Source of the DNA: a virus
Direction: 5' to 3' (one strand)
Length of the DNA: 64,000 bases
IMG/VR virus record: IMGVR_UViG_3300030107_007800
Coordinates: 20,578-84,577 of that record
Both the position numbers and the translations under genes were made by a program. The first letter of the stretch is position 1, and the number at the start of each line of letters is the position of its first letter. The notes beneath the pieces were generated by a model. It saw only the letters and a list, made by a program, of their open reading frames with translations. It did not search any database and was not told where the DNA came from. Positions 28,227 to 64,000 of the stretch are shown here, in pieces.

Positions 28227-28233
28227 CTATTTA
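28227..28233 (+). promoter_or_regulatory. CTATTTA element upstream of the 28242 gene
   Basis: CTATTTA lies 8 bases before the ATG of a gene with no clear ribosome site. The same heptamer recurs in three other intergenic gaps. Its meaning is unknown; it may be a promoter -10 element. Confidence 0.25.
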
Positions 28234-28241
28234 CAAATGTT

Positions 28242-28532
28242 ATGAAAGACTTAGAATCATATATCGAAGAAGCAATAAAAAACATCAGGAGTGATCGCGC
28301 TATCACCACGACTCTGTTAATGGAGTTGCTGGAGTATATGAAAAAGGATGAGGACAGGAAAGAGTCTGTCGGAACCATCGCCGCGAAATACGTAGAAACA
28401 CTTCAACGCTCTAATGAGCAATTGGTAAAAGTAAGCAACCTCATACAAAAAAATAGCTCAGGGTCCGAAGAGCTTTCAAGTCAAGATAAAGAAGATTTAT
28501 TTGATTTGATTAATCGCAAGGAGGCTGGGTAA
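28242..28532 (+). CDS. Hypothetical phage protein, helical
   Basis: This 96-residue protein is predicted helical throughout (MKDLESYIEEAIKN, then TTTLLMELLEYMKK), with Lys/Glu-rich, Gln-containing segments and no recognised domain. The gap before it (28220-28241) has no convincing ribosome site. It overlaps the tail-lysozyme gene by one base. It may belong with the virion module or be a small regulator. Confidence 0.55.
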   Translation: MKDLESYIEEAIKNIRSDRAITTTLLMELLEYMKKDEDRKESVGTIAAKYVETLQRSNEQLVKVSNLIQKNSSGSEELSSQDKEDLFDLINRKEAG

Positions 28533-51508: not shown

Positions 51509-51517
51509 CTATTTATA
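51509..51517 (+). promoter_or_regulatory. CTATTTATA element before the 51522 gene
   Basis: CTATTTATA stands 4 bases before the ATG. Read on the - strand it contains TATAAATA, the T4 late-promoter core, but no - strand gene follows. Confidence 0.28.
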
Positions 51518-51521
51518 GAAT

Positions 51522-52499
51522 ATGAAGTTTTTTGATAAAAAAGAAGAAGTGCTGGATATTGAATTGACTCAATATGGCAAACACCTGTTGTCAAGGGGTG
51601 TACTACGCCCAGTTTTTTATGCTTTTTTTGATGATGATATTATATATGATAGTCAATATATTGGCGGCGGCTCAAGTGTTCAAGTGGAACACTCAACAAA
51701 AGAAGGCGACAGAATAAGAAATGTCCCGCGCCCCCATACACAATATAGTTTTGGAGGAGTTGAGAGCAACTTTGATAAAATACATAATGCAGTTTACTAT
51801 AGTGATCCGGCTCTCGACTTAGCATTCACTATAGAACTTACTGAAACAGAAAAATTAGAATATCTGGCAAAACCCCCTTCTGCTATAGACAACTATAATA
51901 GAATGGCTTTGCCTTTAGGGACAAGTCAATATAATTCTGATAATCTACCGGCTTGGGACTTAAAAATGATGAGCGGGGAGATCACAGGTTCTGTTTTGGA
52001 TTATACTGGATCTTCCGGCATAATAAAGATGCCTCAACTTGATATTGAGGTTTTTTATGAAACTGAGATTAAACAACTGGATGACGGAAACGCTATAAGT
52101 GGAGACAGCTCAGAGAATATAAATATTTTCCCTGATGGGACCTATGTTGAGATAACAAAGGATTATATTGCAATTGATTTGTCCGAACACAATTCTCTTT
52201 TTGAAAATGAAAATTTCGAATTAGAGGCATACGAAATGGTGCTGGAACAATCTGTCGATACTAATCATTTGATGGAGTGGACGTATAGACCCCTGTATTT
52301 TATAGATGGTGAAAAAATTACTAATGATGTTTTTTATAAAAATAATTTAAGGCAAAAAACAGATGTCACGCAAGACAATGTGGAGTATTATTTTGATTTA
52401 AGAGTCGATGATGAAATAACAGATACTGCTGGTATGAGAAATAATATAATCACAGATATTTATAAAAAGAAGCCAAAGAACGATAAGGAGCCCTGTTAA
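51522..52499 (+). CDS. Virion protein with YAF-DD N-terminal module
   Basis: This 325-residue protein begins MKFFDKKEEVLDIELTQYGK and then R-G-V-x-x-P-V-F-Y-A-F-F-D-D-D-I-I-Y. The same pattern L-T-x-x-G-x-x-x-L-x-R-G, then Y-A-F-x-D-D-x-I-x-Y, begins the protein at 60518, so the two share an N-terminal module. The rest is Asp/Glu- and Asn-rich and beta-strand like. Its position between two large tail proteins supports a structural role, perhaps attaching a fibre. It overlaps the next gene by one base. Confidence 0.6.
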   Translation: MKFFDKKEEVLDIELTQYGKHLLSRGVLRPVFYAFFDDDIIYDSQYIGGGSSVQVEHSTKEGDRIRNVPRPHTQYSFGGVESNFDKIHNAVYYSDPALDLAFTIELTETEKLEYLAKPPSAIDNYNRMALPLGTSQYNSDNLPAWDLKMMSGEITGSVLDYTGSSGIIKMPQLDIEVFYETEIKQLDDGNAISGDSSENINIFPDGTYVEITKDYIAIDLSEHNSLFENENFELEAYEMVLEQSVDTNHLMEWTYRPLYFIDGEKITNDVFYKNNLRQKTDVTQDNVEYYFDLRVDDEITDTAGMRNNIITDIYKKKPKNDKEPC

Positions 52500-60460: not shown

Positions 60461-60469
60461 CTATTTATA
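60461..60469 (+). promoter_or_regulatory. CTATTTATA element upstream of the 60518 gene
   Basis: CTATTTATA is identical over 9 bases to the copy at 51509. It lies about 48 bases before the 60518 ATG, a distance suited to a promoter with a leader. Confidence 0.3.
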
Positions 60470-60517
60470 CAAAAGGCTAATTATAAAGGCAGTATAGACA
60501 TTTTAGGAGAAAAGTAA

Positions 60518-61462
60518 ATGGCTTTCTTAGACAACAGTGGAGATATTATTTTAGACGCAGTTCTTACCGATGCAGGAAGAGCTAGATTGGCAAGGGGAGA
60601 CGGATCTTTCAAAATTGTAAAATACGCTTTTGCCGATGACGAAATCGATTATTCAAAGTACAATAAAGACCACCCTAGCGGTTCTGCATATTTTGATATT
60701 GATGTTTTGACAACTCCTGTCATAGAAGCTTTGACCAACAACACTTCAACTATGAAAAACAAGCTTATGTCCATACCAAAGACAAATCTGCTTTATTTGC
60801 CCGTCATTAAACTCAACGAAGAAGCCGGTGTAGGCGAAGAACGAACCAACTCTGGGGGACCCATTCCTTCCACTTATGTAGTTTGTGTCGATACGAATAC
60901 AGATAATGCTGTGAATAGTGGAGACCCAACCACAGATGGCACTAAGGTGAAGGGAATCTTCAACTCTGGAGATGGAACAACTGAATCAAGATTCATAGCG
61001 GTCGATCAAGGCTTAAATACAACTGCTATATCAAAAGAGTTTACCATTGACCCAACCTTAAAAGAGACACAATATATTGTTGAAATTGATAACAGATTAG
61101 GGTATATAGTGTCTCCAGATAGCCAAGGAAACCAACAAGCATATTCCTTCTTGGATGATGATAACATAGCTAGTTACAGTTTCTCGGTGGGGGATGGGGA
61201 TATGGTGGATACAATGTCCGCCGGTTCCGACAGTCCAATTCAGGGTCCTAGAGGTACAAGGCTTAAATTTAGAGTAGCGCCCTCTATTGAGTTGAATTCG
61301 AGCACTTATTTGTTTACATTGCTTGGAACTAGCGGCAATAGCTATTTATACGGCGGCACCTCTAATAACTATAGGAGAATTGACAGCAATATAACGATTA
61401 CTGGCGCAACAACTGGATATAGAATTAATATACCGATATCGTTTATAAAATACCAATCATAA
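60518..61462 (+). CDS. Virion protein sharing the YAF-DD module
   Basis: This 314-residue protein has the N-terminal module L-T-D-A-G-R-A-R-L-A-R-G followed by K-Y-A-F-A-D-D-E-I-D-Y, shared with the protein at 51522. A beta-rich region follows (TKVKGIFNSGDGTTES and PRGTRLKFRVAP), and it ends in a short beta-strand segment. AGGAG at 60505-60509 serves the ATG. It is the first gene after the 109-base gap, so a promoter may lie just upstream. It is probably a fibre/baseplate-linked protein, followed by a paralogous pair of virion genes. Confidence 0.62.
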   Translation: MAFLDNSGDIILDAVLTDAGRARLARGDGSFKIVKYAFADDEIDYSKYNKDHPSGSAYFDIDVLTTPVIEALTNNTSTMKNKLMSIPKTNLLYLPVIKLNEEAGVGEERTNSGGPIPSTYVVCVDTNTDNAVNSGDPTTDGTKVKGIFNSGDGTTESRFIAVDQGLNTTAISKEFTIDPTLKETQYIVEIDNRLGYIVSPDSQGNQQAYSFLDDDNIASYSFSVGDGDMVDTMSAGSDSPIQGPRGTRLKFRVAPSIELNSSTYLFTLLGTSGNSYLYGGTSNNYRRIDSNITITGATTGYRINIPISFIKYQS

Positions 61463-61477
61463 AGTGAGTAAAAAATT

Positions 61478-62695
61478 ATGGCAACAAGTTTCAAAAATTT
61501 CTTAAATAACGATGTAACATCAACCAGAACGCTTCTGCACGAAGCGATACCTGTTACAGGCTCAATAGTTTCTGGTACGTACAACGACCCTGCGATTGTT
61601 TATTCTGGATCGCTCGCCGACAATAATGTCAAAAATTATTCCCATGGTATGTTCCAGTCCGTATATGATTACCCCTATTTGAGTTCGTCGGCAAATCACA
61701 TTTTTGACATCACTGTTGGGTATTCTAACGATTCAGGACTGTCATCTTCCGCAAACGTACAAAATTCCGACAAAATCAATATTTATAGCCAAATGGCGCA
61801 AATGTTGGTAGGTCATGATTCTGATGGCAACGTGAGAAACTTTGATCAAGATGGAGACCTTACAGGCGGCGTGAAATTGACCGCTTGTTACTTTTTGAAT
61901 TTTGCTAGACTTCTCCAGAAAGACGAGATTAAGAAGGGTAGTTTTAGCTTGGTCTTAGGATCTAGTAGTTCGTTTATGCTATCAGCCTCTGCGGATGCTG
62001 GTCATAACGGATCTGCACCATTCTATCCCCATTCGAACTCGCAACCTAATTCAACTTCCGCTGGCATAGTCATAACTGACTCTAACGCTCAGAATTCATA
62101 CAAGATAAACTCACCGGCAGGTGAATATGCGATATTATATGCGTCTGGGTCAAAAACAACCCCCACCACAAAAGCAGGGCTACTATATTATCAGGCAGGC
62201 GTGGCTGTCTTAACCGCCTCTGTCTTCCAAGCCACTGATACGCAATCTGGTAATGATGCGGGTGGGCAAGCTCTCGCATTAGTTGATAGTGCTCCTATTG
62301 AAATGACTCTAAATCCAGATACTTTGCATCCCGGAAGTGCATATAAGCAAAATGTTAATCAAATGTTGAAAAATGTATCAATATCCGGATCAGCCGATGC
62401 ATTTAGGCACAGACTCTTTGATTTGGATTTTAACAACACGACAGAATTAAATTCAACAATTTATTTCTGCCGAGCCGGACACAATGAATTTAACTATAGT
62501 TCAAATCCCAGCTATATTGATAGCGCAAGTAAAATAAGAGTTAAAAATAGTAGCTTGGACCAACCAGTCTCTTATATAACAACAGTGGGTCTTTATTCCG
62601 CAGATAATGAGCTTTTGGCTGTAGCAAAAGTGTCCGAACCGCTCAAGAAAACTCCCGATACGGAGCTGACATTGAGGGTTAGGCTAGACTACTAG
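61478..62695 (+). CDS. Virion protein, paralogue 1
   Basis: This 405-residue protein shares several blocks with the next gene: K-K-G-S-F-S-L-V-L-G in the middle, G-V-A-V-L-T-A-S, F-N-N-T-T-E-L-N-S-T-I and a C-terminal ITTVGLYSADNELLAVAKVS. Composition rich in Ser, Thr, Asn and Gly fits a beta-structured tail protein. A weak ribosome site (AGTGAG) precedes the ATG. No enzyme motif is seen. A fibre, adhesin or baseplate-arm role is likely. Confidence 0.66.
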   Translation: MATSFKNFLNNDVTSTRTLLHEAIPVTGSIVSGTYNDPAIVYSGSLADNNVKNYSHGMFQSVYDYPYLSSSANHIFDITVGYSNDSGLSSSANVQNSDKINIYSQMAQMLVGHDSDGNVRNFDQDGDLTGGVKLTACYFLNFARLLQKDEIKKGSFSLVLGSSSSFMLSASADAGHNGSAPFYPHSNSQPNSTSAGIVITDSNAQNSYKINSPAGEYAILYASGSKTTPTTKAGLLYYQAGVAVLTASVFQATDTQSGNDAGGQALALVDSAPIEMTLNPDTLHPGSAYKQNVNQMLKNVSISGSADAFRHRLFDLDFNNTTELNSTIYFCRAGHNEFNYSSNPSYIDSASKIRVKNSSLDQPVSYITTVGLYSADNELLAVAKVSEPLKKTPDTELTLRVRLDY

Positions 62696-62710: not shown

Positions 62711-63886
62711 GTGCCTTATTATCAATTCTCCCCTGACGACATTATAAGAAATACCGTTGTAACTTTTCCTAAAACTAGTTTCTTTATTTACGGGGGTGTT
62801 ACCTATCATAATAACCAACCATACAATCAGGGCGAATTAACTAGCGATAATGTTAAGCACATACCTCCGGGTTTTGTTAGTTTGTATGAATATAACGTTG
62901 ATAGACCATCTGGGCAACTAATATATCCATTTATAACCAAACAAGGTTCTTTAACAACTTTCAAGACAATATCTACAAAAACTTTTAATGAAGATTTTCA
63001 ATACGGCGACATTATGACGGGTAGTTATCCGTTATCAGCTAGTATAACTAGGCAATACTATAGTATTGAGGATACGTCTAGACCAAGAATCGATGCGTTA
63101 AAAAATACTATGAATTTCTATAGAGCCAATAGCGAACACCACGCCTACTCATCTGACAGTGGCACAGGGTGGAACAAGGGGGTTCAAGCTCTCAATTTGA
63201 TCAGCATACCTTCAATATTTTTTGGGTCTCAAATAAAAAAAGGATCTTTAGAATTAAATTTTTATGTCTCTGGAACGCTTATTGGAACTTTGCAGGACCA
63301 TAGGAGAAATGGGGAATTGATTCAAACAGGTCCAGAGGGTAGCGTTGGATCTGGGTCTGTAGCAGGTGTCGCATTGTACAATGAGGGGTTTTTGCTGCTA
63401 ACTGGATCATGGGATTTGGACGATGATCACACTGAAAGATATCTTGGTCCGAGCACTACACCCCAAGCTCCCGCTTGGATCTATTTTGGAGTAGGGGCAC
63501 AAGACGCAATAACAATACCAAGCCAAGAATCAGCTTGGGCGCTTGATTTTAGAGGTACTACAAAGACACAAGTGGTAACAATGTTTGCCAATGCGCCCAA
63601 AGGAAGAATAAATCATTCAAATAATTCAACTTATTCTAAATATGGGGACGCGACAACAGCCTCAACGGGTTCCTTGTATTATAGTGAGCCAAGAGGTGTT
63701 AGAATAAAGAATATTGTTAGCGCATCTTATATAGATGAAGATCCTCAATTTGCAAAAGAAACATATATTTCCAAAGTTGGTATATATGATGAAAATAAAA
63801 ACTTAATTGGCATTGCTAAGGTCGCAACCCCAGTCAGAAAAACCGAACAAAGAGACCTTACTTTCAAACTAAAGCTTGACATCTAA
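62711..63886 (+). CDS. Virion protein, paralogue 2
   Basis: This 391-residue protein is similar in build to the preceding gene: K-K-G-S-L-E-L-N-F, G-V-A-L-Y-N-E-G-F-L-L-L-T-G-S and the C-terminal block ISKVGIYDENKNLIGIAKVA that parallels ITTVGLYSADNELLAVAKVS. The N-terminal third differs, so the two may attach at different sites but share a C-terminal domain. The start is GTG with a strong AGGAGG. It ends 24 bases before the RuvC-like ATG, and its last codons contain the TTGACA of the following promoter. Confidence 0.68.
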   Translation: MPYYQFSPDDIIRNTVVTFPKTSFFIYGGVTYHNNQPYNQGELTSDNVKHIPPGFVSLYEYNVDRPSGQLIYPFITKQGSLTTFKTISTKTFNEDFQYGDIMTGSYPLSASITRQYYSIEDTSRPRIDALKNTMNFYRANSEHHAYSSDSGTGWNKGVQALNLISIPSIFFGSQIKKGSLELNFYVSGTLIGTLQDHRRNGELIQTGPEGSVGSGSVAGVALYNEGFLLLTGSWDLDDDHTERYLGPSTTPQAPAWIYFGVGAQDAITIPSQESAWALDFRGTTKTQVVTMFANAPKGRINHSNNSTYSKYGDATTASTGSLYYSEPRGVRIKNIVSASYIDEDPQFAKETYISKVGIYDENKNLIGIAKVATPVRKTEQRDLTFKLKLDI

Positions 63887-63904
63887 CAGAAACCCTGCTA
63901 CATT
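63876..63904 (+). promoter_or_regulatory. Sigma70-like promoter before the RuvC-like gene
   Basis: A perfect TTGACA (63876-63881), a 17-base spacer and TACATT (63899-63904, 4 of 6 to TATAAT). The expected start of transcription falls at about 63911, on the ATG itself. Confidence 0.55.
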
Positions 63905-63910
63905 CCTCCT

Positions 63911-64000
63911 ATGATTTTAGGACTAGACATTTCAACAAGCATTGTTGGTTTCACCATTATAGATCAGGGCGAAATAGCAAAGACATTCGCAGTAGATCTA
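63911..64000 (+). CDS. RuvC-like Holliday-junction resolvase, 3' end outside the window
   Basis: Only 30 residues are visible. They begin MILGLDISTSIVGFTIID, the first strand of the RNase H-fold of RuvC-family resolvases, in which Asp6 would be the first catalytic acid. The gene would cut branched DNA during replication or before packaging. No ribosome-binding site precedes the ATG; the bases just upstream are CCTCCT. The candidate promoter implies a leaderless or nearly leaderless message. The remaining catalytic residues lie beyond the window. Confidence 0.66.
   Translation, partial: MILGLDISTSIVGFTIIDQGEIAKTFAVDL

What the first reader, a model, noticed from the sequence alone, without database searches (positions are those of the whole stretch)
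63876..63930. Sigma70-like promoter placing the start at the RuvC-like ATG, preceded by CCTCCT
TTGACA-17-TACATT leads to a predicted transcript start on the ATG. The bases directly before the ATG are CCTCCT, the complement of a ribosome-binding site rather than the site itself. A leaderless early message at the edge of the late module would mark a switch in transcription class.
Basis: partly seen in the sequence, partly recalled or inferred. Interest (0 to 1): 0.55.

Follow-up and report, generated by a model that had tools for sequence, protein, structure and literature searches.

The report
Leaderless promoter at phage resolvase gene
In a group of uncultured T4-related phages, the promoter of a DNA-junction-cutting enzyme gene sits so close to the gene that its message should begin exactly at the start codon, and the same layout recurs at other genes of these phages.

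Summary
The promoter is there as described (TTGACA-17-TACATT, CCTCCT, ATG). Alone it is unremarkable, but relatives show it is real. In 42 junctions a TTGACA/TATAAT pair scores at least 9 of 12 with its -10 box starting 12 bases before the RuvC ATG in 21; other positions give 0-2, apart from a start-codon artefact. A fresh set of 63 loci gave 19 at -12 and 5 at -11. Differently built junctions place it identically: TTGACA in the last codons of the upstream gene with a 24-base gap, or further upstream with a 5-base gap. One relative has a late gene and a terminator inserted, yet keeps the promoter. The message should therefore start at the AUG. Neighbouring late genes carry another motif, ACTATTTA/ACTAATTA, so promoter type does change here. 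Across nine contigs both promoter types are bimodal: abutting the start codon, or far enough back for a leader. Phage T4 lacks the abutting class. CCTCCT is not conserved. 'Early' timing is untested; no transcript data exist. Leaderless phage messages are known, so this is a new member of a known kind in a new lineage.

The parts
63876..63881 (+). -35 box TTGACA, made by the codons CTT GAC ATC near the end of the upstream gene
   Evidence: CTT GAC in 14 of 14 junctions with gaps of 22-25 bases against 1 of 52 others
63896..63904 (+). extended -10 box TGC TACATT, 6 bases before the ATG
   Evidence: register conserved; TGn in 32 of 45 promoter-bearing junctions against 4 of 59 others
63905..63910 (+). 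CCTCCT, all-pyrimidine stretch between -10 box and start; not conserved
63911..64000 (+). start of RuvC-like resolvase gene, cut by the end of the record; its A is the predicted transcript start
   Evidence: full-length relative L002 matches phrog_159
62711..63886 (+). 391-aa gene directly upstream in the structural module, its 3' end holds the -35 box
60461..60467 (+). candidate late promoter motif CTATTTA (ACTATTTAT) before the gene at 60518
60477..60483 (+). candidate late promoter motif CTAATTA before the gene at 60518
51509..51524 (+). CTATTTAT then 5 bases then ATG of the 325-aa gene: candidate leaderless start of the late class (abutting motif also in the relative G006, not in the other 7 contigs)
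28227..28244 (+). ACTATTTA then 8 bases then ATG of a 96-aa gene: candidate leaderless start of the late class (same layout in G006, G007, G008)

Best explanation
A sigma70-type promoter with an extended -10 box drives the RuvC-like gene and probably the primase gene overlapping its end. Its -10 box ends 6 bases before the ATG, so RNA polymerase should start on the A of the ATG and make a leaderless message, translated by ribosomes that recognise a 5'-terminal AUG. Late transcripts reading through from the structural genes carry no Shine-Dalgarno site for RuvC, so its synthesis would depend mainly on its own promoter. Shown: the sequence elements, their conserved register to the ATG, the lack of a Shine-Dalgarno site, the different motif before late genes. 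Inferred: the start point, leaderless translation, timing, and the polymerase form used.
For: Register test: 21 of 42 junctions pass at -12, 0-2 at other positions apart from the -1 artefact; fresh set 19 of 63 at -12 and 5 at -11. The promoter keeps step with the RuvC ATG, not with the upstream gene, in junctions of 5, 12, 17 and 22-24 bases. L008 and L137 have RuvC proteins at no measurable distance in the tree but differently built junctions, both with the promoter. L043 keeps it behind an inserted gene and terminator. TGn, not part of the score, in 32 of 45 against 4 of 59. The upstream in-frame stop leaves no other ATG, GTG or TTG start in the window, and Asp6 is invariant in 13 of 13 aligned proteins. 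Genome-wide peak of sigma70-type sites exactly 6 bases before starts: 14, none with a Shine-Dalgarno match, against 1.08 for permuted consensus; none in T4 at 3-10 bases.
Against: No transcript or translation data. 59 of 104 junctions do not carry the promoter by this score, and some relatives have a Shine-Dalgarno site or an overlapping stop/start. The window's own -10 box matches 4 of 6. Lack of a Shine-Dalgarno site is partly automatic, because the -10 box occupies its place. Part of the elements is also coding sequence. Many loci are related, so counts are not independent.
Confidence: 0.82

Rival explanations
1. RuvC is simply the last gene of the late transcript, translated by re-initiation after the upstream stop codon; the promoter match is chance plus conserved codons.
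For: TTGACA is made of conserved LDI codons; several relatives have overlapping stop and start or gaps of 0-2 bases and no promoter.
Against: The box moves with the RuvC start, not with the codons; L043 has a terminator between; register tests.
Confidence: 0.1
2. The promoter is real, but the message starts a few bases away and the true use is a short leader or an upstream-independent start; that is, it is near-leaderless rather than leaderless.
For: 13 of 45 promoter-bearing junctions have A before the start codon, and 5 of 63 new loci have the box at -11.
Against: In the window the six bases before the ATG are all pyrimidines, so the A of ATG is the first purine after the -10 box.
Confidence: 0.15
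3. CCTCCT is a functional anti-ribosome-binding element that pairs with AGGA after the ATG and shuts off translation from read-through transcripts.
For: A UCCU...AGGA pairing around the AUG is predicted.
Against: Fold energy is average (z 0.09); the element is absent from all but the window, L003 and L021 among 42 junctions.
Confidence: 0.02

Closest known systems
[quoted passage not shown] TA-led leaderless genes)
   Same: A TANNNT box about 12 bases before the start codon gives a message with no or a very short leader (passages of PMC12340547, and PMC3160421)
   Different: Here it is in phages whose genes mostly have Shine-Dalgarno sites, the -35 box is often perfect, and it lies inside the preceding gene
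Leaderless cI message of phage lambda
   Same: A leaderless phage message (lambda mentioned as such in passages of PMC9031893, and PMC3160421)
   Different: cI is a repressor gene; here it is a resolvase gene at the border of late and replication genes
Thermus phage P23-45 middle and late transcripts
   Same: Extended -10 promoters (passage of PMC7403470); leaderless messages recalled, the original paper was not held
   Different: Here most promoter-bearing RuvC junctions also have a -35 box, and the phages are T4-related
T4 early and late promoters
   Same: Two promoter classes, a sigma70 type and a late motif
   Different: T4 shows no sigma70-type site 3-10 bases before a start (0 of 31) and its TATAAATA sites lie 13 or more bases away (20 of 20); the late motif here differs

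Membership tests
sigma70-type promoter | TTGACA and TATAAT-like boxes 16-18 bases apart, conserved in relatives | tested here: met
leaderless gene (-10 box next to ORF) | -10 box about 12 bases before the start codon, no Shine-Dalgarno site | tested here: met
leaderless gene (-10 box next to ORF) | message whose 5' end is the start codon, translated as such | not testable with these tools
   needs 5' end mapping and translation tests
early phage promoter | active before phage protein synthesis | not testable with these tools
   no infection time course; host unknown
T4-type late transcription | TATAAATA promoters before late genes | tested here: not met
   TATAAATA shows no consistent coding-strand bias in six contigs, whereas ACTAWTTA does in most
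T4-type late transcription | gp55-like late sigma factor | tested here: inconclusive
   T4 gp55 rang in 0 of 11 records, without a positive control; PF04542 in 0 of 11; small sigma70 region-4 protein in 5 of 5 records over 184 kb
RuvC-like Holliday junction resolvase | family profile match and conserved acidic residues | tested here: met
   phrog_159 5.1e-13 for L002, no Pfam match; Asp6, Glu65, Asp156 and Asp159 invariant in 13 of 13; the window holds only 30 residues

The most novel reading that the evidence does not exclude
This lineage of T4-related phages runs two translation modes across both promoter classes: genes whose promoter abuts the start codon give leaderless messages, genes whose promoter lies about 15 or more bases back give Shine-Dalgarno messages, with almost nothing between. 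Leaderless starts could keep selected genes working when infection alters ribosomes, initiation factors or messages, and could uncouple them from late read-through.
Probability: 0.6. Interest if true: 0.65.

Novelty: new member of a known kind. Interest (0 to 1): 0.52.

Why it matters
The Far-T4 paper says T4 transcription genes were not detected and that transcription patterns may differ and need experiments (passage of PMC4360716). This work gives testable promoters for contigs distantly related to that group: a sigma70-type class, a candidate late motif ACTATTTA/ACTAATTA, and a sharp prediction of which messages are leaderless. It would also correct start-codon calls, and it offers a natural set for asking why a phage that mostly uses Shine-Dalgarno sites keeps some genes leaderless.

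Tried and rejected
Chance match: the single site is unremarkable, so conservation was tested instead. Coding constraint alone: rejected because the promoter keeps step with the RuvC ATG in differently built junctions. One search's own two-by-two table (13/22/1/30) is polluted by TATGAT hexamers made of T plus ATGAT at the start codon; I use only its rows with gaps of 22-25 bases against the rest. The peak at offset -1 is the same artefact. CCTCCT as an element: rejected. A phage sigma region 2 (PF04542) was not found in 11 records while 10 of 14 control genomes rang. Host: relatives in the genome collection were 6 contigs in unrelated bins, so the host stays unknown. Named phages: one record with a 26% RuvC match, seven with partial structural matches. 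A second possible leaderless pair (G000 16149 and its orthologue in G006) did not extend to G007 or L023/L139. The 325-aa gene's abutting late motif is in 2 of 9 contigs only. Paper searches: one search found none holding all five terms; some searches were also used; none listed a transcript map of phages of this group, and the two papers that hold CTATTTAT with 'late promoter' and 'phage' are poxvirus papers, not opened.

Rows dropped before counts: L001 and L004 (same records as the window and L002), L136 (start misplaced; still, dropped), L172 (too short), L011, L014 and the window from the tree (partial RuvC). L164 and L198 were kept although no start codon was found. Gene calls are mechanical ORFs, not curated; up to three starts per ORF were allowed for the sigma70 counts.

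Full report
What is there. At 63876-63913 the window reads TTGACA, 17 bases, TACATT, CCTCCT, ATG, with TG one base before the -10 box. TTGACA is inside the last codons of the ORF 62711-63886, whose stop lies 24 bases before the ATG and in frame with it; no ATG, GTG or TTG codon in that frame lies between. The window ends the record, so only 30 residues of the RuvC-like protein are present. The first full-length relative, L002, matches phrog_159 (RuvC-like resolvase), has no Pfam match at 0.01, and is followed by a primase gene.

Is it more than chance? One site of this strength is not: 45 sites in 10 kb against 28.2 in shuffles. Relatives decide it. One search gave 79 loci and one more; 42 junctions between the upstream gene and RuvC, the window included, could be read after removing two duplicates. 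Scoring TTGACA-(16-18)-TATAAT at every position before the ATG, 21 of 42 score 9 or more with the -10 box at -12, while all other positions give 0-2, except -1, where T plus ATGAT mimics a -10 box. Collapsed into 30 clusters, 10 pass at -12. The RuvC search returned 80 loci; 16 were already seen and one was too short. In the 63 new ones 19 pass at -12 and 5 at -11, others at most 2 apart from the same artefact; in 41 clusters 7 and 3.

Independent constructions. In the nine junctions with a 24-base gap (window, L003, L011, L014, L015, L021, L022, L130, L137) TTGACA is made by the codons CTT GAC AT. In 11 of 12 junctions with a 5-base gap those codons are CTT GAT ATA, and TTGACA (8) or TTTACA (3) sits further upstream in other codons, again 17 bases before a -10-like TATATA that ends 6 bases before the ATG. 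CTT GAC is found in 14 of 14 junctions with gaps of 22-25 bases and 1 of 52 others; in these upstream genes GAC is 296 of 840 Asp codons and CTT 192 of 1152 Leu codons (my sums). L008 and L137 have RuvC proteins at no measurable distance in a quick tree, yet one junction is of the short and one of the long kind. In L043 a 201-aa gene with its own AACTATTTAT and an intrinsic terminator stand between, and the promoter is kept as TTTACA-17-TATAAT-6-ATG. On the tree of 102 RuvC proteins the promoter label needs 17 changes (shuffled mean 32.5), so it is heritable but often gained or lost.

Leaderless reading. Of 104 junctions, 45 carry the promoter at -12 or -11 and 59 do not. None of the 45 has a Shine-Dalgarno match against 16 of 59, though the -10 box itself blocks that place. 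TGn, not part of the score, is in 32 of 45 against 4 of 59, some of it made by a GAT codon or a TGA stop; the base before the start codon is T in 30 of 45. Residue 6 (Asp) is invariant in 13 of 13 aligned proteins, so translation cannot start much further down (that this is the first catalytic Asp of RuvC enzymes is recalled). In the window the A of ATG is the first purine after the -10 box and lies at the usual start distance (established knowledge). CCTCCT is simply the stretch that leaves polymerase that choice.

Is the lineage generally like this? In nine contigs (1374 mechanical ORFs) sigma70-type sites of 10 or more of 12 peak at exactly 6 bases before a start codon: 14 sites, none with a Shine-Dalgarno match, against 1.08 for permuted consensus, with one site at 11-15 bases and most sites beyond that having Shine-Dalgarno matches. 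Two of the 14 are RuvC genes and two others are orthologues of one another. Sites near a start (4-9) have Shine-Dalgarno matches in 2 of 19, far ones (14-60) in 79 of 101. The same scan of T4 gives none at 3-10 bases among 31.

Late class. Before the structural gene at 60518 most close relatives carry ACTATTTAT and/or CTAATTAT. ACTAWTTA is strand-biased, 29:1, 19:2, 31:2, 29:3 and 35:5 in five contigs over 184 kb, weaker in the smaller ones (6:4, 12:3, 5:2, 7:0). Its distance to start codons is also bimodal: 22 at 4-8 bases (2 with Shine-Dalgarno matches), none at 9-14, 74 at 15 or more (64 with; my sums). Near against far Shine-Dalgarno counts were 2/16 and 35/44 in the first six contigs and 1/15 and 45/53 in three contigs fetched afterwards to test it; as with the sigma70 class, a motif that abuts the start leaves little room for such a site. 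In T4 the late motif TATAAATA lies 13 or more bases away in 20 of 20. The five contigs over 184 kb encode a small sigma70 region-4 protein; none of six shorter ones passes the cut-off. This supports a real change of promoter class between the structural genes and RuvC, but not its timing.

What it works like and what it is. It works like the leaderless arrangements of lambda cI and of bacterial genes with a -10 box next to the ORF (passages of PMC9031893, PMC12340547, PMC3160421). The AR9 paper says phage transcripts are often leaderless (passage of PMC5312081), so the kind is known. New here, as far as searches show, are the lineage, the repeated rebuilding of the promoter inside the preceding gene, and its sharing by two promoter classes. 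The contigs are distantly related to phages including Rhodothermus RM378, which the Far-T4 paper places in Far-T4 (passages); I did not test that placement for the window.

Limits. There is no expression evidence. The host is unknown. Gene starts are mechanical. Many loci are related, and a majority of RuvC junctions (59 of 104) lack the promoter by this score.

Noticed in passing
window 60461-60484; nine related contigs: ACTATTTA/ACTAATTA looks like the late promoter motif of this phage group, unlike T4's TATAAATA.
   Followed up: partly
G001-G005 (for example G002:C1:32524-32616): The five contigs over 184 kb encode a small protein with a sigma70 region 4, while no region 2 was found: a possible late transcription factor.
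   Followed up: partly
window 61478-62695 and 62711-63886: The 405-aa and 391-aa proteins share a related C-terminal part (about 28% over 115 residues), so they look like paralogues ending in similar KLDI/RLDY tails.
   Followed up: no
L012 and L044, between the 391-aa gene and RuvC: An inserted 243-aa ORF resembling an HNH-type endonuclease by eye; RuvC there has a GGAGG ribosome-binding site instead of the promoter.
   Followed up: no
RuvC gene 3' part in G002, G005, G006, G007, G008: A second conserved TTGACA-18-TA..(A/G)T pair 76-79 bases before the primase start; it may be only conserved codons.
   Followed up: no
L002, L010, L021 against their 391-aa genes: RuvC proteins 97-100% alike sit beside upstream genes only 47-67% alike to the window's, which suggests recombination at this junction.
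   Followed up: partly
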